From positions 1,302,001 to 1,366,000 of the forward strand of contig NZ_CP016753.1 in the NCBI RefSeq assembly GCF_002240055.1: a DNA stretch of 64,000 bases, written 5' to 3'. Origin of the DNA: Leptotrichia sp. oral taxon 498 (GTDB lineage Bacteria; Fusobacteriota; Fusobacteriia; Fusobacteriales; Leptotrichiaceae). The notes beneath the pieces were generated by a model that was not told the origin of the DNA, did not search any database, and was given only the letters and a program-made list of their open reading frames with translations. Position numbers and translations under genes: made by a program. This document shows positions 8,413-25,073 of the stretch, piece after piece. The stretch's first letter is position 1, and each line of letters starts with the position of its first letter.

Positions 8413-8459
8413 AATAAGTTAATTAGTAAAAAAAATAAGTTATAAGGATTGGATATAAT
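8413..8459 (+). promoter_or_regulatory. Composite promoter A: two AATAAGTTA boxes plus TATAAT
   Basis: Two identical AATAAGTTA boxes (8413-8421 and 8434-8442) are 21 bp apart. The second ends 11 bp before TATAAT (8454-8459). The same layout recurs at 8507, 10660, 18241, 20441, 21715 and 25027. No normal -35 box is present, so the boxes probably recruit an activator or a special sigma factor. Another copy (B) follows 94 bp downstream before the first GTPase gene. Confidence 0.65.
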
Positions 8460-8506: not shown

Positions 8507-8553
8507 AAAGAGTTATTTTTAGGAAAAAATAGGTTAGAGAGAAAAGGTATAAT
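8507..8553 (+). promoter_or_regulatory. Composite promoter B for the first GTPase gene
   Basis: AAAGAGTTA (8507-8515) and AATAGGTTA (8528-8536) are 21 bp apart, then 11 bp to TATAAT (8548-8553). The spacing is identical to promoter A. The GTPase start codon lies about 50 bp further on. The sequence after A and after B is also alike (TGTAAAGAATGAGAGA and TGTAAATGAGAAAGAG), which suggests an ancestral tandem duplication with loss of the gene that belonged to A. Confidence 0.65.
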
Positions 8554-8601: not shown

Positions 8602-9294
8602 ATGACGAGTTTTAAATATTATAGAAAAAATGATATAGAAAAGAAATTGGAAAAAGCTAGATTTAGACCTTTGGATGTGATGGTAACAGGAGTAACAGGA
8701 GCAGGTAAATCGACAACATTAAATACAATTTTTAAAAAAAATGTGGCAACGGTTGGTAACGGTGTGGATCCTGAAACAATGGATTTAGATTCTTATTCGT
8801 TAAATGATGTATTTAGATTGTGGGATACTCCTGGATTAGGAGATGGTGTTGCGAATGATGAGATTCATAAAAGAAAATTGGTAGATTTGCTGTATAAAAC
8901 TTATTCATTAGATGGAAATATTTATGGTTGGATAGATTCGGCAATTGTGGTTTTAGAAGGTTTGAATAGAGATATGGGAAGTACGTATACATTGTTAAAT
9001 GAGGTAATAGTTCCAAATATACAGGCAGATAGAATATTGGTAGTGATTAATCAAGCAGATATGGCGATGAAAGGCAGACATTGGAATAAGGAAACAAATA
9101 GACCGGATGAAGTGTTAGTAGATTTTTTAGAAAAACAAGCGTTATCTATACAAAATAGGGTAAAAGAAACAACAGGAGTAACAATAAGAAAACCAGTATA
9201 TTATTCAGCAGAATATGGTTATAATATAGAAAAATTATTAGATTTCATAATAGATAATATGATTGTAGAGAGAAGACCGTTAGTTAGAGCATAA
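8602..9294 (+). CDS. P-loop GTPase, tailless form, CRISPR-island accessory protein
   Basis: The 230-residue protein has all G motifs: GVTGAGKST (G1), WDTPGLGDG (G3), NQADMAMKG (G4) and a YYSAEYG region in the G5 position. It resembles the YeeP/Era-like predicted GTPases of unknown role. It is clearly related to the GTPases at 9619 and 20534 over the G domain but stops after it (ERRPLVRA) and lacks their hydrophobic glycine-rich tail. An ATG at 8602 fits GGAG 11 bp upstream; a TTG at 8596 is also possible. It is preceded by two composite promoters shared with the other island genes. A defence role is inferred from that position and regulation. Confidence 0.85.
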   Translation: MTSFKYYRKNDIEKKLEKARFRPLDVMVTGVTGAGKSTTLNTIFKKNVATVGNGVDPETMDLDSYSLNDVFRLWDTPGLGDGVANDEIHKRKLVDLLYKTYSLDGNIYGWIDSAIVVLEGLNRDMGSTYTLLNEVIVPNIQADRILVVINQADMAMKGRHWNKETNRPDEVLVDFLEKQALSIQNRVKETTGVTIRKPVYYSAEYGYNIEKLLDFIIDNMIVERRPLVRA

Positions 9295-9441
9295 TGTAGA
9301 TATTAAATTTTCTTTGGAGTGGTGAATGCTGAAACTTGGGTATAAAAAATTGTTTTTGTAAGTTAATTAAAAAGAAAAATGAGTTATTTAAAAATGTTAT
9401 CATAAGTTATAATAAAAATTTGATTTTTGGAGGAATGAAAT

Positions 9442-9546
9442 ATGGGAAGATTGATTAGGGAAAATGAAATGAGATATTATGGAGTTAAAATAAAAAGAGA
9501 TAAACAAATTTTAGGAAATAAATTGATGTATTCAAGCAAAAAATAG
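9442..9546 (+). CDS. Candidate 34-residue basic small protein
   Basis: A short frame starts with ATG eight bases after a strong GGAGG (9429-9433). Upstream, 9408-9413 is a TATAAT with several GTTA motifs before it, though not at the exact composite spacing. The product is rich in Lys and Arg, with MRYYGVKIKRDK in the middle, and has no recognised domain. It lies between two GTPase genes in a 320-bp gap that is otherwise empty. It could be a real small protein or the remains of a longer gene; only the good ribosome site supports translation. Confidence 0.35.
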   Translation: MGRLIRENEMRYYGVKIKRDKQILGNKLMYSSKK

Positions 9547-9618: not shown

Positions 9619-10623
9619 ATGGCAAGAAATATATTTAAGGAAATTGAAAGAAGAGTAATGAATGAACAAATGGATGAAACGACGAGACAAAAATTATTGG
9701 GTAATTTATTGAGAATGAAGGAGCAAAAAATTAATTTAATGATTACGGGTGCAACAGGAGTGGGGAAAAGTAGTACTATTAATGCGTTGTTTGGAGAAGA
9801 AGTAGCAAAAGTAGGAACAAGTGTAAATCCAGAAACAATGGGAATTGACAAATATGAGTTGGATAATTTAGTAATATGGGACACTCCAGGATTAGGTGAT
9901 GGAAGAGAAGCTGATAACAGACATAGTAAAATAATAATTGATAAGCTTTATGAAAAAGATAGAAATGGGAATTTGTTAATTGATTTGGTTTTGGTAATAT
10001 TGGATGGTAGCAGTAGAGATTTAGGGACATCGTATGAATTAATAAATAGTGTGATTATACCAAATTTGGGGGAAAATAAGAAAAATAGAATATTAGTGGC
10101 GATTAATCAGGCAGATGTAGCGATGAAGGGAAAATATTGGAATGCACAAGAAAACCAACCTGAGAGAAAACTACAAGATTTTTTGGAAGATAAAGTTGCA
10201 TCAGTGAGAAGAAGAATTAAAGAAGCTACAGGAATAGATGTTGAACCGATTTACTACAGTGCTGGCGACAAAGAAGAAGGATATATGCAACAAAAACCGT
10301 ACAATTTATCAAAACTATTATACTACATATTACAACATACACCAGAAGAAAAAAGATTAGTTTATGCACAAAATATTAATAAAGAAGAAGCTATGTGGAA
10401 AGACAATGATGATTTACAAGATTACAGAGCGGGAGTTTTAGAAAAATTTGTGGAATCAGTAACAAGAGGAATGGCAATAGGTGGAACAATAGGTCAAGCA
10501 ATAGGAAGTTTAGTAGGATTAGGTTCAGTTGGAAGAGTAATAGGTACAGTAGGTGGAGCAATAGTTGGAGTAGGAGCAAATATAATTAGTGGAGTTGTTG
10601 ATTTTTTTGAAGGAATATTTTAG
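9619..10623 (+). CDS. P-loop GTPase with C-terminal glycine-zipper tail
   Basis: This 334-residue protein has G1 GATGVGKSST, G3 WDTPGLGDG and G4 NQADVAMKGKYWN. After the G domain (about residues 30-235) and a linker with MWKDNDDLQDYR comes a hydrophobic Gly/Ala-rich stretch from about residue 280 (GMAIGGTIGQAIGSLVG, then GTVGGAIVGVG) ending in VVDFFEGIF. Glycine-zipper segments of this kind often insert into membranes. It is a close paralogue of the GTPase at 20534. The ATG at 9619 is chosen because AGAGG lies 8 bases upstream; an in-frame TTG at 9613 is closer than ideal. It belongs to the YeeP-like predicted GTPases. A membrane-remodelling or pore-forming immune role, like eukaryotic interferon-induced GTPases, is an analogy only. 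Confidence 0.87.
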   Translation: MARNIFKEIERRVMNEQMDETTRQKLLGNLLRMKEQKINLMITGATGVGKSSTINALFGEEVAKVGTSVNPETMGIDKYELDNLVIWDTPGLGDGREADNRHSKIIIDKLYEKDRNGNLLIDLVLVILDGSSRDLGTSYELINSVIIPNLGENKKNRILVAINQADVAMKGKYWNAQENQPERKLQDFLEDKVASVRRRIKEATGIDVEPIYYSAGDKEEGYMQQKPYNLSKLLYYILQHTPEEKRLVYAQNINKEEAMWKDNDDLQDYRAGVLEKFVESVTRGMAIGGTIGQAIGSLVGLGSVGRVIGTVGGAIVGVGANIISGVVDFFEGIF

Positions 10624-10659: not shown

Positions 10660-10706
10660 AGTTGGTGAAAAAATTACATAAATAAGTTATTGAATTAATA
10701 TATAAT
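10660..10706 (+). promoter_or_regulatory. Composite promoter E for the small tail protein
   Basis: AATAAGTTA (10681-10689) ends 11 bp before TATAAT (10701-10706). The upstream box is weaker (AGTTGGTGA, 10660-10668) but lies exactly 21 bp before the good one. The next gene starts 30 bp after the -10. Confidence 0.55.
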
Positions 10707-10736
10707 GAATCTAAAATAAAAAAGGAGGTGATAAAA

Positions 10737-10937
10737 ATGACAGGAATTGAAGAAACAGTAGGCACAGTATTATTAGTAACAGCAGGCGTAGTTGCAGTGG
10801 CAGAAGGTGTAAATGAAACAGCAAAATTATTGAATGAAACAGTGAATACAGCAGATGAAATGTTTACAACAATGGGAAATATGGCAGAAGATTTTTGTAA
10901 CGAAGTGTCTAATTTTTTTGATAGTTTTTGTTGGTAG
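10737..10937 (+). CDS. Small hydrophobic protein resembling the GTPase tails
   Basis: This 66-residue protein consists of a hydrophobic Val/Ala/Gly stretch (GTVLLVTAGVVAVAEGVNET), an amphipathic middle and an aromatic end SNFFDSFCW. The end resembles those of the GTPases at 9619 (DFFEGIF) and 20534 (GSFFSGWF), and the ALA/VAL-rich part resembles the start of the 20534 tail (AEGVANVVNGVANVV). It therefore looks like a free GTPase tail, able to contact membrane or to co-assemble with the GTPases. The ATG at 10737 follows a strong AGGAGGTG by seven bases; a GTG inside that site (10728) is rejected. It has its own composite promoter. Confidence 0.7.
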   Translation: MTGIEETVGTVLLVTAGVVAVAEGVNETAKLLNETVNTADEMFTTMGNMAEDFCNEVSNFFDSFCW

Positions 10938-11106: not shown

Positions 11107-13221
11107 ATGGCTAAAATATTGATAGCAGGGTTGGGGAAAGGGATGATAGATCGTAACAGTGAAGAAAGAGACTACAGAAAAGCAGATTATAAAATAAAAA
11201 TTGAGGAAACAGGAGAATATAAAATTTATAGAGATGAATATTTTGTAACATCGGTATTAGAAAAACATTATGATATAGATAAAACAATATATATTGGAAC
11301 AGCAGGGTCGATGTGGGATAAACTTTATACACATTATTGTAAGAAAAATGGATTTTCCACTGAAAGTGAAGAATATGAAAAATATAGAGATGAATTGAGA
11401 AATGTTACTAAAAATGCGAATAAGAATACAGATGTTTTAAATATAAACAGTGAAAAATTTAATTCTATATTTGAGAATACAGAAAAAAAAGTACAAATAA
11501 TAGTAACAAAATATGGAATGAATAAAAATGAAATATTTGAAAACTTTAATAAAATTATAGAAATCGTAAATTCTTTAAATAAAGAAGATGAAATTTATTT
11601 GGATATAACCCATTCTTTCAGATCAAATGCAATGTGGATATTTTTAGTGATGAACTATATTACAGAAGTTATTGATAAAAATATAAGAATAAAAATGATA
11701 ACATATGGAATGCTGGAAGAAATGGATGATGATGAAACAGAAAAAGATTTAAATGGGAATCCTTTAAAAGTAGCTCCAATAATTAATTTGAAATCATTTT
11801 TTGACTTAATGAAGTGGATAAAAGGAGCGAATGCTTTTAAGCAATATGGGAATACTTATGAATTTTTAGATATGATTGAAGATAATAAGTTGAAAAATAC
11901 ATTGGAAGAATTTTCAAATTCAATGAATATGAACTATATTGGGAATATAAAAGAAAATATCGGAAAAATTAATCAAATGGAAAAAACAATAAAAACATTA
12001 GATGGACCTGCCAAACTATTATTACCAGATATTTTAGAAAGATTTGCACAAAATTTTGGTGAGAAGCAGGAGACATTTGAGATATTATTAGGTTTAGCGG
12101 AATGGCACTATAATCAAAAAAGATATTCAATGAGTTATGTAAATATTATTGAAGCTATTTATACTTTTACAGGAAAAATTTTAGAAGTTGAAGATATAAA
12201 TAAAGGTAAAGAAGTATTGAGAGAATGGATAAATAGAATAACTGAAGAAAATAAAATAAAATATAAAGATTTGTCAGAAAAAGAAATAAATAATAGAATA
12301 AAATTAAGTGAAATTTTTGAAAGTTCTAGAGTTATTAGAAATAATATTTCGCATACATTGGAAAGTAGAGCAGAAATGCAAGAAATTATTTCAAAAATCC
12401 CAGAAAATATACAAAAATTAAGAGAAATATTTAAAACTGAATATAAAAAAGGTGAGATTCATAAGTCACAAGATTTGAAAATGCAACAGACATATACTTT
12501 TTTAGAAAAATTAGCTGAAAATGGTCAGTTTGCAGAAATTGGTAGAGTTGCATCTAATGGAATTTATGATTTTTTGTTTGAGGAACTTGGAGTACAAAAG
12601 TCAGGAGAGAATAAAAATGTTGTAAAAAATTGGCTGGATAATAAAAGAGGAAATTTTGAAAAAGAATTAGAAAAAGGGCAATTATCTGAATTAATGAAGT
12701 TGTTTTTAGAAGTTAAAAATAATAGTAGAAGTATTACAAGAAAAGAAATAATTAAGAAGATAAGACACTTACAAAATATATTAACGAAAAAGTCATTTTT
12801 GGAAGCCATTGAAAATGTAAATTTAAATGATAAAAGAAGTTCTCAAACACAACAAGTGCCTAAAATAAATGTAAATAAAGAAGACAGAAAAATTTTAGTA
12901 TTTAAAGAAATATTTGGAGAGCAAGAAAAAAAAGAAGTAATAAAAAAATATAAGATAAAAAGAATAAGCAAATTGAGTAGTGAAATTGCAAAAGAATGGC
13001 AAAATCTTGAAAATGATAGCAACAAAGAAAAAAATATAAAAAGATTTAAAGATATAATAGACAGAAATATTGATTCAGGTGATATTTTATTGATAGAAGG
13101 AGAAGTTGGGATAACTTTTGAATTGGTAAATTGGGCAAAAGAAAAAGGAATTATTGCAATTTATGGAGTTGAGAAAGTGACTGATAATTTTTTACTTAAA
13201 GTAGAATTTTATGAATATTAA
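11107..13221 (+). CDS. csx1: CARF-HEPN ribonuclease (Csx1/Csx2 family) fused to a Csx20-like domain
   Basis: This 704-residue protein has an N-terminal CARF domain with GTAGSMWDKL (about residue 63) and the DxTH signature DITHSFRSNAM (Asp166). That is typical of the TM1812/Csx1-Csx2 family, which binds cyclic oligoadenylate made by Cas10. A helical HEPN domain follows with the RX4H ribonuclease motif RNNISH (Arg411-His416). The last 110 residues (594-704) match the separate Csx20-like protein encoded next, including LSSEIAKEW, DILLIEGE and GITFELVNW, but the SHxLT motif of the free protein is lost here (FKEIFG). Csx20 proteins are reported as a ring-nuclease family. So this is a nuclease carrying a possible off-switch or a sensor for its own ligand. 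AGAAGGAG precedes the ATG. Confidence 0.85.
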   Translation: MAKILIAGLGKGMIDRNSEERDYRKADYKIKIEETGEYKIYRDEYFVTSVLEKHYDIDKTIYIGTAGSMWDKLYTHYCKKNGFSTESEEYEKYRDELRNVTKNANKNTDVLNINSEKFNSIFENTEKKVQIIVTKYGMNKNEIFENFNKIIEIVNSLNKEDEIYLDITHSFRSNAMWIFLVMNYITEVIDKNIRIKMITYGMLEEMDDDETEKDLNGNPLKVAPIINLKSFFDLMKWIKGANAFKQYGNTYEFLDMIEDNKLKNTLEEFSNSMNMNYIGNIKENIGKINQMEKTIKTLDGPAKLLLPDILERFAQNFGEKQETFEILLGLAEWHYNQKRYSMSYVNIIEAIYTFTGKILEVEDINKGKEVLREWINRITEENKIKYKDLSEKEINNRIKLSEIFESSRVIRNNISHTLESRAEMQEIISKIPENIQKLREIFKTEYKKGEIHKSQDLKMQQTYTFLEKLAENGQFAEIGRVASNGIYDFLFEELGVQKSGENKNVVKNWLDNKRGNFEKELEKGQLSELMKLFLEVKNNSRSITRKEIIKKIRHLQNILTKKSFLEAIENVNLNDKRSSQTQQVPKINVNKEDRKILVFKEIFGEQEKKEVIKKYKIKRISKLSSEIAKEWQNLENDSNKEKNIKRFKDIIDRNIDSGDILLIEGEVGITFELVNWAKEKGIIAIYGVEKVTDNFLLKVEFYEY

Positions 13222-18321: not shown

Positions 18322-18783
18322 ATGAAAGTAAAAATTGCATCAATTAAGAAAAACAGATATGAAGATGGGCCTGGAATTAGAACAACAATATTTTTTCAAG
18401 GTTGTAATGTAAAATGTAGAGGTTGTCACAATGAAAGAATACAAGATATACGATATGGAAAAGAGTATGAAGTGAGAGATTTATGTGAAGAAATATTATC
18501 GTATAACTTGCCAGTAAAAAAAATTACTATTTCAGGTGGAGAACCTATGATGCAAAAAGAAGCCTTAGAAGAATTTATTGATGAAATGCACAAGAAAAAT
18601 TTTGAAATTGCACTTTATACTTCATATGACTTAGAGGAAGTTCCAAAAAACATTTTAGAAAAATTAAAGTATTTAAAAGTTGGAAAATATATAGATACAT
18701 TGAGAATACAAGAAAAGTTTTATGGATCAAGTAACCAAAAATTTTATTCATTGGAAAAAGGAGAGATTGTAAATGAGAGTTAA
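18322..18783 (+). CDS. nrdG: Anaerobic ribonucleotide reductase activase (NrdG-like radical SAM)
   Basis: The 153-residue protein has the radical-SAM cluster motif CNVKCRGC (CxxxCxxC) right after a GPGIRTTIFFQG block, and the SAM-binding ISGGEPM motif. This is the compact architecture of NrdG, which uses SAM and a 4Fe-4S cluster to put the glycyl radical on NrdD. GGAGG precedes the ATG. Its 3' end overlaps nrdD by 11 bp, so the two are translated together. The pair sits inside the CRISPR accessory block under the shared composite promoter, not in a housekeeping context. The family call is firm; a role in phage defence is inferred from position. Confidence 0.88.
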   Translation: MKVKIASIKKNRYEDGPGIRTTIFFQGCNVKCRGCHNERIQDIRYGKEYEVRDLCEEILSYNLPVKKITISGGEPMMQKEALEEFIDEMHKKNFEIALYTSYDLEEVPKNILEKLKYLKVGKYIDTLRIQEKFYGSSNQKFYSLEKGEIVNES

Positions 18784-20371
18784 TCAAGCAAATGCAAATA
18801 CAAATGCAGCATATAGAATTTTGAAAAATGAAGAATTTAAAAATCAATTGCACGAAGAAAGATGGATTCATATTCATGATAAAGAGTATACAGGGGTTTC
18901 ATATAATTGCATTGGGATTGAATTAAGAGAAAAATTAAACCAACTGAAAGAAAATTTAGAAGAAATGGAAATTGATGATGCATTAGATTGTATTTTTCAA
19001 GTAATTGTAAATTTAACAAATGACCAATCAGGTGGAATAGGGTTTATTAATATTGACAGTGATTTGGCGGAATTTGTACAAGAAGTTTCAGAAGAAAAAT
19101 TAATAACAAAAATTAGAAGATTATACCAAAAGTTGAATTTACCATTGAGAAATGGGTATGAAAAGGCGTATGTCTCATTTAATTTAGGATTAGATACTAG
19201 TGAAAATGGGAGAAAAGTAACTAGATGTTTTTTAAAGGCTTTTGAATATGGTGAAATATTAAATGGATTACCTTTTGTTTTTCCAAATATAATTTTCAAA
19301 TTAAAAAAAGGTATTAATTTTGATTCGGATGACAAAAACTATGATTTATTTTCATTAGCAACTAAAGTGACAGGAAAAAGAATGAATCCAACATATTTTA
19401 ATTGTGATAGCGTTTTAGTAAAAGATATTAATGAGAAAAAAGTTGGAATAATGGGGTGCAGAACATTAGTTGCAAAAAATGTAAATGGAGAAGAAGGAGC
19501 ATTAAAAAGAGGGAACATTGCATCAATTTCAATAAATTTACCAAAAATAGCAAGAGAAAGTACAAATTTAAATAATTTTTATAAAAAATTGAGTGAAATC
19601 TGTGAAGAATCAAAAGATATCTTAATTCAAAAATATAAGGCATTGTGCAAATTAGAAATTGATAATTTTAGATATATTTTAGAAAATAATTTTTATGAAA
19701 ATTCTGAAGAGGCAATAAACAATAATGATATGGAAAAAAGTTTTAAAAATGGTACACTTTCAATTGGATTTATTGGATTGGCTGAATGCGTAAGTTATTT
19801 AGTAAAAAAAGAAATATCTTTAGATATGATAGAAAATAATTTAGAATTGTCGAGAGAAATATTAAGATTTATGAGAAAAATGACGGATAAATGGACTAAA
19901 AAGTATAATTTGAATTTTTCAGTTTTGGCAACTCCTGGCGAAGGAATTAGTGGGAGATTTTGTGAAGATGAAGAAACTAAGGAATTTTATACAAATTCGT
20001 TTCATATACCAGTTTATCTTGAATTAGATGCATTTAAAAAATTAGAATTAGAATCAAATTTTGTTGAATATTGTAATGGAGGTTCAATTTCTTACATCGA
20101 ATTTTCAACGCCTGTGTTAAATAATAGTGAAGCGATTATGGATGTTGTTAAATTTGGAATTTCAAAAGGTATAAATTATTTAGGAATAAATTTCCCGTTA
20201 GATTATTGTGAAAGTTGTAAAACTACTGGAATATTTGAAGAAAAATGCAGTTGTTGCGGAAGTATTGAAATAAAAAAATTAAGAAGAGTTTCTGGCTATT
20301 TATCATATAAAGAAACATTAAAAGGTGGAAAAAAAGCAGAGGAAAAAGTTAGAAAATCTCATTTGAAATAG
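18773..20371 (+). CDS. nrdD: Compact class III ribonucleotide reductase (NrdD-like) without ATP cone
   Basis: At 532 residues it is shorter than usual NrdD (about 600-700). The N-terminal ATP-cone that senses dATP is missing, and the protein starts close to the catalytic barrel: HIHDKEYTGVSYNC puts the first active-site Cys at residue 46. The second Cys is probably in GIMGCRTL. The zinc site CESCKTT/KCSCCGS and the glycyl-radical loop RRVSGYLS are intact, so it should be active once charged by NrdG. It makes deoxyribonucleotides from ribonucleotides under anoxia. Loss of the cone predicts weaker feedback control. It is placed with the CRISPR island by the upstream composite promoter and by a terminator that ends the pair. 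Confidence 0.88.
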   Translation: MRVNQANANTNAAYRILKNEEFKNQLHEERWIHIHDKEYTGVSYNCIGIELREKLNQLKENLEEMEIDDALDCIFQVIVNLTNDQSGGIGFINIDSDLAEFVQEVSEEKLITKIRRLYQKLNLPLRNGYEKAYVSFNLGLDTSENGRKVTRCFLKAFEYGEILNGLPFVFPNIIFKLKKGINFDSDDKNYDLFSLATKVTGKRMNPTYFNCDSVLVKDINEKKVGIMGCRTLVAKNVNGEEGALKRGNIASISINLPKIARESTNLNNFYKKLSEICEESKDILIQKYKALCKLEIDNFRYILENNFYENSEEAINNNDMEKSFKNGTLSIGFIGLAECVSYLVKKEISLDMIENNLELSREILRFMRKMTDKWTKKYNLNFSVLATPGEGISGRFCEDEETKEFYTNSFHIPVYLELDAFKKLELESNFVEYCNGGSISYIEFSTPVLNNSEAIMDVVKFGISKGINYLGINFPLDYCESCKTTGIFEEKCSCCGSIEIKKLRRVSGYLSYKETLKGGKKAEEKVRKSHLK

Positions 20372-20440: not shown

Positions 20441-20487
20441 AATAAGTTAATTACTAAAAAAAATAAGTTAAAGAAATAGATTATAAT
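20441..20487 (+). promoter_or_regulatory. Composite promoter I for the third GTPase gene
   Basis: Two perfect AATAAGTTA boxes (20441-20449, 20462-20470) lie 21 bp apart, with 11 bp to TATAAT (20482-20487). It is nearly identical to promoter A at 8413, including the sequence TTAATTACTAAAAAA between the boxes, so the two regions were probably duplicated together. Confidence 0.7.
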
Positions 20488-20533: not shown

Positions 20534-21646
20534 ATGAAACGTGACTTATTGAAAGAATTTGAAAGTATTATTATGAAACAAAAGTTGAATGAAAATGTGA
20601 AACAAAAATTGTTAGGTAATTTATTGAGATTGAAAAAACAGAAAGTTAATTTGATGGTTACAGGTGCAACAGGTTGTGGGAAAAGTAGTACGATAAATGC
20701 GTTATTTGGTGTAGAAGTGGCTAAAGTTGGAACAAGTGTGGATCCTGAAACAATGGATATTGAAAGATATGAGTTAGACAATTTAGTAGTATGGGATACT
20801 CCAGGATTAGGTGATGGAAAAGAAGCGGATAACAGACACAGTAAAAGAATGATTGATAAACTTTATGAAAAAGATGAAAATGGGAATTTGCTAATAGATT
20901 TAGTTTTGGTGATTTTAGATGGTGGTAGTAGAGATTTAGGAACATCGTATGAGTTAATAAATAATGTGATTATACCGAATTTAGGAAAAAATAAAGAAAA
21001 TAGAATATTAGTGGCAATTAATCAAGCGGATGTAGCGATGAAGGGGAAATATTGGAACGAAGAAGAAAATAGGCCTGAGGATGAGCTAGAAGAATTTTTA
21101 GATAGAAAAGTAGAATCTGTAAAGAAAAGAATTAAAGAAGCGACAAGAATAGAAGTAGAACCAATATATTACAGTGCAGGATACAAAGAAGAAGGATATT
21201 TACAACAAAAACCGTACAACTTATCAAAATTATTATATTACATATTACAAAATACACCAGAAGAAAAAAGAGTAGTTTATGTGCAAAATTTGAATCAAGA
21301 AGAAGTAATGTGGAAAGATAATGATGATTTGAAAGATTATAGAAAAGGTATTTTGGAAAGTATTTTAGGAGCAGCAGTTGGAGTGTTAGCAGAAGGTGTG
21401 GCAAATGTGGTAAATGGAGTTGCAAATGTAGTTGAAGGTGCATCAGATGGGATTTCAGAAGGTAGTGATACAGGATCAGATGTTGGTGGAGCAATAGGTA
21501 GTATATTTGGAGAAGTTGGAGAAACAATAGGTTCAGCAGTGGGTTCAGTAGTTGGAGGAGTTGTTGGTGGAGTAGTAGGAGCAGTTAGTTCGGCAGTAAG
21601 TAGTGTGTGTGATACGATTGGAAGTTTCTTTAGTGGATGGTTTTAA
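20534..21646 (+). CDS. P-loop GTPase with long glycine-zipper tail
   Basis: The 370-residue protein is a close paralogue of the GTPase at 9619. G1 is GATGCGKSST, G3 WDTPGLGDG and G4 NQADVAMKGKYWN, and the linker again reads MWKDNDDLKDYRKG. From about residue 280 the tail runs through AEGVANVVNGVANVVEGASDG, a serine/glycine section and a GxxxG-rich part (GSAVGSVVGGVVGGVVGAV), ending IGSFFSGWF. The tail could insert into or wrap on a membrane. The ATG at 20534 follows GAAGG by nine bases, as in the 9619 gene; the TTG at 20528 is rejected. It has its own composite promoter and is followed by a stable hairpin. Confidence 0.87.
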   Translation: MKRDLLKEFESIIMKQKLNENVKQKLLGNLLRLKKQKVNLMVTGATGCGKSSTINALFGVEVAKVGTSVDPETMDIERYELDNLVVWDTPGLGDGKEADNRHSKRMIDKLYEKDENGNLLIDLVLVILDGGSRDLGTSYELINNVIIPNLGKNKENRILVAINQADVAMKGKYWNEEENRPEDELEEFLDRKVESVKKRIKEATRIEVEPIYYSAGYKEEGYLQQKPYNLSKLLYYILQNTPEEKRVVYVQNLNQEEVMWKDNDDLKDYRKGILESILGAAVGVLAEGVANVVNGVANVVEGASDGISEGSDTGSDVGGAIGSIFGEVGETIGSAVGSVVGGVVGGVVGAVSSAVSSVCDTIGSFFSGWF

Positions 21647-21714: not shown

Positions 21715-21760
21715 AGTATGTTATTTTAGAAAAAGATGAGTTAAAAAAAAGTGATATCAT
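21715..21760 (+). promoter_or_regulatory. Composite promoter J for ecsC
   Basis: Boxes AGTATGTTA (21715-21723) and GATGAGTTA (21735-21743) are 20 bp apart; TATCAT (21755-21760) begins 11 bp after the second. The boxes and -10 are weaker than in other copies, but the spacing holds. The gene starts 32 bp after the -10. Confidence 0.45.
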
Positions 21761-21792: not shown

Positions 21793-22407
21793 ATGTTAGA
21801 AAGAGAAATGATGAATTTGTTGGATGTGTGTTATGATAAGGCTTTACAAGGTGTATTGCCAGTAGAAAAATCAATTGAAGAATTAGCAGAAGATTATTTA
21901 GCAAAAACTAACAGTAGAGAAAAAGCAATAGACAAGTTAATAGGATATCAAACAGTATTGTGTGGAACAAATGGATTTATAACAGGATTAGGTGGATTAT
22001 TAGTATTACCAGTAGCAATATCAGCAAATGTAGCAGGTGTGATTTATGTACAATTAAGAATGATAGCAGCAATAGCACACATAAATGGGTATGATATTTA
22101 CAGCGATCAAGTAAGAACAATAGCTTATGCATGTTTAACAGGAAGTTCAGCAGCAAATATATTAAAAAATGTGGGAATAAAAATTAGTGAAAAAATGGCA
22201 GTTAATGCGTTAAAAAAAGTTCCAGGAGCAATATTGATAAAAATAAATCAACAAGTTGGATTCAGATTAGTTACAAAATTTGGACAAAAAGGTTTGGTGA
22301 ATGTCATAAAAATGATGCCATTAGTAGGCGGAGTAGTAGGTGGAGTATTTGACACAGGGATGACATTAACAATAGGGAATATAGCAAAAAAAGTATTTTC
22401 GGAATAG
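21793..22407 (+). CDS. EcsC-family protein
   Basis: The 204-residue protein fits the EcsC family along nearly its whole length: GFITGLGGLLVLPVAISANV, YVQLRMIAAIAHINGYD, AYACLTGSSAANILKNVG, GFRLVTKFGQKGLVNV and PLVGGVVGGVFDTGMTL. The family is named for a protein near the Ecs ABC transporter in Bacillus; its biochemical role is not known, but the two hydrophobic Gly-rich stretches suggest membrane association. Here it has a composite promoter like the GTPases and lies just before cas1. TAGGAGGTAT gives a good ribosome site. It may partner the GTPases at the membrane; that is inference. Confidence 0.8.
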   Translation: MLEREMMNLLDVCYDKALQGVLPVEKSIEELAEDYLAKTNSREKAIDKLIGYQTVLCGTNGFITGLGGLLVLPVAISANVAGVIYVQLRMIAAIAHINGYDIYSDQVRTIAYACLTGSSAANILKNVGIKISEKMAVNALKKVPGAILIKINQQVGFRLVTKFGQKGLVNVIKMMPLVGGVVGGVFDTGMTLTIGNIAKKVFSE

Positions 22408-25026: not shown

Positions 25027-25073
25027 AATAGGTGAATTATTAATAAAAATAGGTTAGAACAATGGTATATAAT
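25027..25073 (+). promoter_or_regulatory. Composite promoter K upstream of the cas6-cas10 operon
   Basis: AATAGGTGA (25027-25035) and AATAGGTTA (25048-25056) are 21 bp apart, with 11 bp to TATAAT (25068-25073). This ties the interference operon to the same control as the GTPase, nrdDG and ecsC genes. It is 228 bp before the cas6 start. Confidence 0.65.

What the first reader, a model, noticed from the sequence alone, without database searches (positions are those of the whole stretch)
10737..10937. A tail-only protein resembles the C-terminus of the GTPases
The 66-residue product has the same make-up as the GTPase tails and ends FFDSFCW, compared with FFEGIF and FFSGWF. The first GTPase lacks a tail, so this small protein might supply it in trans. 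It has its own composite promoter and a very strong ribosome site, which suggests high expression.
Basis: partly seen in the sequence, partly recalled or inferred. Interest (0 to 1): 0.65.

Follow-up and report, generated by a model that had tools for sequence, protein, structure and literature searches.

The report
Small helical companion of CRISPR-linked GTPases
The 66-residue gene is real and shares a dedicated on-switch with a set of immunity-type GTPases inside a type III CRISPR island, so it is probably a small membrane-associated accessory of that system, but it is not a detached copy of the GTPase tail.

Summary
The gene at 10737-10937 is real: purifying selection (dN/dS 0.17), the longest ribosome-site match in the window (11 nt) and orthologues in four relatives. 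Its 'composite promoter' is the strongest result. The box ATRRGTTA-N11-TATMAT occurs 7 times in the whole 2.15-Mb genome. All 7 sites lie in this 17-kb island, before GTPase A (twice), a 34-aa ORF, this gene, GTPase C, an EcsC-family gene and the cas6 operon.

The 'GTPase tail' reading fails. Similarity to the tails is not above shuffled sequence, the protein is acidic with 8% Gly (tails 22-24%), and it is predicted as one helix. Only an aromatic-capped C-terminus is shared. A trans-tail is also unnecessary. GTPase A is tail-less in all 47 related loci with a recognisable A gene, and in 46 a larger, nearly always glycine-tailed GTPase lies next door; none of the 78 loci searched has this protein.

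The GTPases resemble IRG/Toc34/GIMAP immunity GTPases and recur in type III CRISPR loci of other phyla (Butyribacter, Sulfurovum, Lentisphaerae, Psychromonas).

Best explanation: a lineage-specific, membrane-associated helical accessory or regulator of this GTPase module. The regulon link is shown; the membrane role is inferred.

The parts
10737..10937 (+). 66-aa acidic helical protein (ATG start; in-frame GTG at 10728): hydrophobic residues 8-22, amphipathic helix about 25-64, aromatic C-terminus FFDSFCW
   Evidence: ORF; dN/dS 0.17; AF2 single helix 3-64, mean pLDDT 84.5; family alignment A1
10682..10706 (+). regulon promoter box ATAAGTTA-N11-TATAAT of the small gene
   Evidence: conserved in G005 with a diverged spacer, and in G014 with one mismatch
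10722..10732 (+). very strong ribosome-binding site AAGGAGGTGAT
   Evidence: longest anti-SD match in the window
8602..9294 (+). GTPase A, tail-less member of the two-GTPase module
8435..8459 (+). regulon box, distal, upstream of GTPase A
   Evidence: direct repeat 21 bp upstream at 8414
8529..8553 (+). regulon box, proximal, upstream of GTPase A
9379..9403 (+). regulon box upstream of the 34-aa ORF
9442..9546 (+). 34-aa basic ORF MGRLIRENEMRYYGVKIKRDKQILGNKLMYSSKK
   Evidence: conserved in G014, dN/dS 0.17
9619..10623 (+). GTPase B, tailed (glycine-zipper-like tail from about residue 270, coordinates 10429-10620)
   Evidence: AF2 pLDDT 84.9; Foldseek: Toc34, Irga6, GIMAP7, LeoA
20463..20487 (+). 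regulon box upstream of GTPase C
   Evidence: direct repeat at 20442
20534..21646 (+). GTPase C, tailed, ends FFSGWF
21736..21760 (+). regulon box upstream of the EcsC-family gene
21793..22407 (+). EcsC-family protein (PADLOC phage-defence candidate PDC-S29)
   Evidence: PF12787 E 8e-13; PDC-S29 E 4e-81
25049..25073 (+). regulon box upstream of the cas6-cas10 operon
11107..13221 (+). CARF-HEPN-Csx20 fusion, next gene downstream; no perfect regulon box

Best explanation
The protein is a small, highly expressed, lineage-specific accessory of a GTPase module embedded in a type III CRISPR-Cas island of a Leptotrichia-group bacterium. The module consists of a tail-less GTPase (A) and two glycine-tailed GTPases (B, C), with an IRG/Toc34/GIMAP-like G domain. 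An activator that recognises ATRRGTTA, often as a direct repeat 21 bp apart with the downstream copy where a -35 element would be, probably switches on A, the 34-aa ORF, the small protein, C, the EcsC-family protein and the cas6-cas10 operon together (shared box shown; activator inferred). The tails anchor B and C to the membrane, and tail-less A is brought there by G-domain pairing with them, as proposed for GIMAP7 with GIMAP2 (inferred). The small protein most likely lies on the same membrane as one helix, with residues 8-22 buried and the aromatic-capped amphipathic part on the surface, and modulates or scaffolds the GTPases there (inferred). It is not a homologue of the GTPase tail and is not needed to give A a tail.
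For: Shared box: 7 genome-wide hits, all in the island; 0.02 expected per shuffled window. Six of six hits in G013 and seven of seven in G002 are also in the island; genus-mates lacking the island have 0-1. The G002 paralogue of the small gene carries the same box with one change. Purifying selection. Family found in 5 of 98 Fusobacteriota genomes, all carrying the A/B GTPases or their remnants. Fold: single helix, KD-19 maximum 1.87 at residue 7, hydrophobic moment up to 0.55 in the C-terminal half. GTPase fold resembles Toc34, Irga6 and GIMAP7. A is next to a larger, usually tailed GTPase in 46 of 47 loci. Type III genes are linked to this GTPase module in Butyribacter and in Sulfurovum, a Lentisphaeria MAG and Psychromonas. 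GIMAP precedent: PMC8201404.
Against: No direct evidence of membrane location or of binding to a GTPase. The hydrophobic segment is short (about 15 residues), is interrupted by Gly/Thr, and is absent from the G002 paralogue, whose N-terminus is charged; membrane insertion is therefore uncertain and surface association more likely. The family is missing from all other GTPase loci, so any role is dispensable to the module in general. The box pattern was derived from these sites, so the shuffle figure overstates its significance; the whole-genome exclusivity and conservation in G005 are the firmer tests. GTPase B and nrdG carry only degenerate boxes. No activator was identified.
Confidence: 0.5

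Rival explanations
1. Tail in trans: the small protein is a detached GTPase tail that docks on GTPase A and gives it a membrane anchor.
For: Shared aromatic-capped C-terminus, weak 15-column profile match to the end of C's tail, neighbouring genes and shared promoter box. In G005 A and the small gene are intact while B and C are broken.
Against: Full-length similarity at chance; Gly 8% against 22-24% and strongly acidic; one long helix, whereas B's tail is Gly-rich with its middle at pLDDT below 50. A is tail-less in all 47 loci with a recognisable A gene, and 46 have a larger partner GTPase next door. No relative in 78 loci.
Confidence: 0.1
2. Independent membrane-active effector: on induction the small amphipathic helix itself disturbs the membrane, as one abortive arm of the CRISPR island, without binding the GTPases.
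For: Small size, amphipathic helix with an aromatic end, hydrophobic segment, very strong ribosome site.
Against: Strongly acidic, unlike most membrane-lytic peptides (general knowledge); no cOA-sensing domain; the promoter box is shared with GTPases and cas genes rather than being toxin-specific; no partner antitoxin seen except possibly the 34-aa ORF.
Confidence: 0.2
3. Inhibitor or chaperone: the small helix binds G domains or tails in the cytosol and keeps the GTPases inactive or soluble until the island is triggered.
For: Co-regulation and a strong ribosome site would give an excess of an acidic helix; acidic helical partners often mask hydrophobic tails (general knowledge). The paralogue without a hydrophobic stretch fits a soluble role.
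Against: No structural or interaction evidence; the other GTPase loci do without it.
Confidence: 0.18
4. Remnant: the ORF is a decayed end of a former GTPase gene with no function.
For: The island decays in relatives: tail-only ORFs in G014 and G005 and a 4-base deletion in the G014 small gene.
Against: dN/dS 0.17, very strong ribosome site, conserved promoter box, a diverged paralogue with the same conserved residues.
Confidence: 0.02

Closest known systems
GIMAP / Toc34 / IRG (p47) immunity-type GTPases
   Same: G-domain fold of GTPase B (Foldseek: Toc34 E 3.5e-8, Irga6 7e-8, GIMAP7 9e-7; Pfam IIGP and AIG1 hits); tail-less and hydrophobic-tailed members encoded together, as with GIMAP7 and GIMAP2.
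   Different: Bacterial, about 20% identity, glycine-zipper-like tail, encoded in a CRISPR island; the small protein has no counterpart there.
Type III CRISPR ancillary genes (Csx1/Csm6, Csx20, CARF proteins)
   Same: Same island and, for the cas6-cas10 operon, the same promoter box; the GTPase module recurs in type III loci of several phyla.
   Different: Neither the small protein nor the GTPases carry a CARF domain. The 34-aa ORF, small gene, GTPase A, GTPase C and EcsC-family gene have the box; the CARF genes do not have a perfect one.
LeoA/LeoBC bacterial dynamin-like proteins
   Same: Best PADLOC match of GTPases A and B (E 1e-12, P-loop region only); LeoA structure 4aur among fold hits.
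   Different: LeoA and LeoBC models are about 560-600 residues; the match covers only about 70-90 residues.
Leptotrichia type III-D CRISPR loci
   Different: That paper does not mention GTPases or promoters; small genes were not described in the passages read.

Membership tests
Glycine-zipper tail of the CRISPR-linked GTPases | sequence homology to the tails beyond composition | tested here: not met
   SW z 0.7 (B) and 1.3 (C), against 11.3 for B versus C; hhalign probability 1.7% and 0.2%
Glycine-zipper tail of the CRISPR-linked GTPases | Gly-rich composition with repeated GxxxG | tested here: not met
   Gly 8% against 22-24%; no GxxxG in the sequence (sequence)
Glycine-zipper tail of the CRISPR-linked GTPases | aromatic-rich extreme C-terminus | tested here: met
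   4 F/W in the last 9 residues; 51% of tails and 1.4% of other proteins have at least 3
Glycine-zipper tail of the CRISPR-linked GTPases | acts as membrane anchor of a G domain | not testable with these tools
   needs localisation and interaction experiments
Ancillary gene of type III CRISPR-Cas | conserved location inside a type III locus | tested here: met
   all five genomes with the family carry it beside the GTPases of the CARF/Csx20/CRISPR island
Ancillary gene of type III CRISPR-Cas | co-regulated with cas genes | tested here: inconclusive
   same box before the cas6-cas10 operon and the small gene, at the level of sequence only; no expression data
Ancillary gene of type III CRISPR-Cas | association kept across distant lineages | tested here: not met
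   small protein found only in five Leptotrichia-group genomes
IRG/GIMAP/Toc34-like GTPases (for A, B, C) | G1 and G3 motifs with the family fold | tested here: met
   motifs in A, B and C; fold modelled for B only
IRG/GIMAP/Toc34-like GTPases (for A, B, C) | GTP-dependent dimerisation | not testable with these tools
   no complex modelling available

The most novel reading that the evidence does not exclude
A type III CRISPR island carries a bacterial counterpart of the GIMAP/IRG immunity GTPases: a tail-less and a tailed GTPase that act at the membrane, put under one dedicated activator box together with small helper proteins, one of which is this 66-residue helix that gates or recruits the GTPases. 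The module would be a new, recurrent, membrane-acting arm of type III CRISPR immunity.
Probability: 0.3. Interest if true: 0.8.

Novelty: new variant of a known kind. Interest (0 to 1): 0.5.

Why it matters
If right, a whole GTPase module related to vertebrate and plant membrane GTPases is tied to type III CRISPR immunity in several phyla, and in this lineage it has a dedicated promoter code and small helper proteins that annotation pipelines may overlook. The promoter box gives a direct, cheap test of which genes act together and of when the island is switched on.

Tried and rejected
- Homology of the small protein to the GTPase tails: rejected.
- Relatives in phages and plasmids, in GTDB contigs and IMG/VR, in Pfam and NCBIfam, in the PDB by sequence (best E 0.17) and in PHROGs (best E 0.03): none. 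The PADLOC ZorA hit (E 0.008) and the weak Fusobacteriota hits inside large ORFs are read as coiled-coil-like chance matches.
- A lucky-looking match to the end of a 495-aa protein in L051 (SFCSGVASFFGW): that locus was fetched by the same profile and the protein matches no Pfam family; read as convergence.
- Sigma-70 scan: no excess of ordinary promoters, while inspection of the upstream regions showed a non-standard box.
- A repeat search around GTPases A and B of L084 found no clear box of this kind.
- One first count of A-partner pairs used too narrow a motif and was redone.

Full report
WHAT WAS CHECKED. The ORF at 10737-10937 encodes MTGIEETVGTVLLVTAGVVAVAEGVNETAKLLNETVNTADEMFTTMGNMAEDFCNEVSNFFDSFCW. 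It lies in a single-contig 2.15-Mb genome. CRISPR systems of this kind are described in Leptotrichia (PMC6914741); the genus assignment is my inference from that and from the gene content, since genomes here are unnamed. The surroundings are a type III CRISPR island: a CRISPR array (7.5-8.3 kb), GTPase A (8602), a 34-aa ORF (9442), GTPase B (9619), the small gene, CARF-HEPN-Csx20 (11107), Csx20 (13329), CARF-HEPN-CARF (13758), a CARF protein (16002), nrdG and nrdD (18322, 18773), GTPase C (20534), an EcsC-family protein (21793), cas1, cas2 and cas4 (assigned by reading, 22.5-24.5 kb), a second short array, cas6 and cas10.

THE GENE IS REAL. Orthologues occur in G013 (100%), G002 (98%), G005 (82%, with seven extra residues in frame) and G014 (frameshifted by a 4-base deletion). 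G002 has a second, diverged copy (45% identity) upstream of GTPase A. Against G005, dN/dS is 0.17 over 66 codons. The ribosome site AAGGAGGTGAT is the longest anti-Shine-Dalgarno match in the window. The family is confined to five of 98 Fusobacteriota genomes, all of them carrying the A/B GTPases or their remnants. Three of the five are near-identical here, so there are effectively three lineages plus the paralogue.

IT IS NOT A GTPASE TAIL. Smith-Waterman scores against the tails of B and C are at the level of shuffled tails (z 0.7 and 1.3), while the two tails align to each other at z 11.3. Profile comparison finds only a 15-column match to the end of C (P 0.03, probability 1.7%) and nothing for B. 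Composition differs too: Gly 8% against 24% and 22%, net charge -10 in 66 residues. AlphaFold2 gives one continuous helix, residues 3-64, mean pLDDT 84.5 from four sequences. What is shared is the extreme C-terminus. Among 69 tailed GTPases, 63 have F or W in the last three residues and 35 have at least three F/W in the last nine, against 12% and 1.4% of 636 other proteins; the small protein has four. Real tail ends also score better against it than shuffled ones, which fits a common amphipathic, aromatic-ended design rather than shared ancestry.

A DOES NOT NEED A DONATED TAIL. A scan of GTDB genomes with the GTPase alignment gave 78 loci in Clostridia, Negativicutes, Synergistetes, Proteobacteria, Spirochaetes and Lentisphaerae. 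In 47 of them an A-type GTPase of 223-254 residues was recognised. In 46 a larger GTPase (at least 265 residues) lies within 1.5 kb, usually directly adjacent (median gap 5 bp); inspection shows nearly all are Gly-tailed, some with a further C-terminal extension. No locus encodes a relative of the small protein. Window B and C are the tailed type. Stand-alone tails of B exist in G014 (85 aa) and G005 (82 aa), but there GTPase B itself is deleted or broken, so they are probably debris.

THE STRONGEST RESULT: A DEDICATED PROMOTER BOX. The general form ATRRGTTA-N11-TATMAT occurs seven times in the 2.15-Mb genome, all on the + strand and all in the island: 8435 and 8529 (GTPase A), 9379 (34-aa ORF), 10682 (small gene), 20463 (GTPase C), 21736 (EcsC-family gene) and 25049 (cas6-cas10 operon). 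The reversed control pattern has two hits, and shuffled windows give 0.02 on average. G002 has seven hits and G013 six, all in the island; other members of the genus that lack the island have none or one. In G005 the box of the small gene is kept while its spacer has changed; the G014 gene and the G002 paralogue carry it with one substitution. Five sites have a second copy 21 bp upstream as a direct repeat; the small gene has only a weak upstream half. This looks like an activator site overlapping the -35 region. The pattern was read off these sites, so the shuffle figure is optimistic; exclusivity in the remaining 2.1 Mb and conservation in G005 are the independent parts. The activator was not identified.

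WHAT THE GTPASES ARE. GTPase B hits Pfam MMR_HSR1, IIGP and AIG1. Its AF2 model (53 sequences, pLDDT 84.9) matches Toc34, Irga6, GIMAP7 and LeoA in the PDB. In GIMAPs, anchor-less GIMAP7 promotes GTP hydrolysis by membrane-anchored GIMAP2 (PMC8201404), a ready model for A with B or C. The module recurs in type III CRISPR loci elsewhere. L084 (Butyribacter) has Cas7 III-D, two CARF-HEPN proteins, Csx20, nrdG, nrdD, GTPases A and B-type and two arrays. L086 (Sulfurovum), L096 (Lentisphaeria) and L100 (Psychromonas) have Csm or Cas10 genes and CARF proteins; L102 (a second Psychromonas) has the same gene order with an array and a viperin-like gene. Many other loci showed no array in the DNA held, so the link is recurrent but not obligatory; no enrichment statistic was computed.

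MECHANISM COMMITTED TO. Shown: real gene, helical prediction, C-terminal aromatic cap, shared box, exclusive co-occurrence with the GTPase island. Inferred: membrane association, contact with the GTPases, joint induction. On activation, B and C would insert their tails in the membrane, A would join through its G domain, and the small helix would sit alongside and modulate them. Rivals are a direct membrane-active peptide, a soluble inhibitor, and the trans-tail idea; of the functional rivals, the last is the least consistent with the comparative data.

NOVELTY. Type III-D islands with unnamed accessory genes are known in Leptotrichia (PMC6914741); that paper does not mention GTPases. No held paper was found that describes this GTPase module in type III loci, but the literature search was limited to open-licence text and the 2019 survey of type III accessory genes was not held.

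Noticed in passing
window 8435, 8529, 9379, 10682, 20463, 21736, 25049: Regulon box ATRRGTTA-N11-TATMAT, seven genome-wide hits, all inside the island; points to an unidentified dedicated activator.
   Followed up: yes
L084, L086, L096, L100, L102: The same two-GTPase module lies in CRISPR loci of four other phylum-level groups; type III genes were confirmed by profile in L084, L086, L096 and L100. L100 and L102 also carry viperin-like genes, L084 nrdG/nrdD as in the window.
   Followed up: partly
window 18322-20371; L084:7656-9943: nrdG and nrdD (anaerobic ribonucleotide reductase) are embedded between CRISPR ancillary genes and GTPases in both Leptotrichia and Butyribacter: possible nucleotide-pool or radical function in defence.
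   Followed up: no
window 9442-9546: 34-aa basic ORF between GTPases A and B with its own regulon box, conserved in G014 (dN/dS 0.17).
   Followed up: partly
L064:8652-9998, L078:8634-9998, L108:5402-6781: Some tailed GTPases have a further conserved roughly 110-residue C-terminal extension starting (G)CYITTA after the Gly tail.
   Followed up: no
L105:8866-9102 and L105:10752-10985: Two unrelated small proteins (78 and 77 aa) that share a C-terminal segment (ATSI.GI.KHVY) flank GTPases in a Lachnospiraceae locus; small companions may recur with different sequences.
   Followed up: no
L046:9580-9828 versus window 10375-10620: The tail of GTPase B is nearly identical in DNA between G005 and the window (dS 0.06) while its G domain is diverged (dS 0.95): recombination at the tail.
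   Followed up: partly
window 9619-10623: GTPase B matches phage protein family phrog_16468 (E 2e-76, nearly full length), so phages carry relatives of this GTPase.
   Followed up: no
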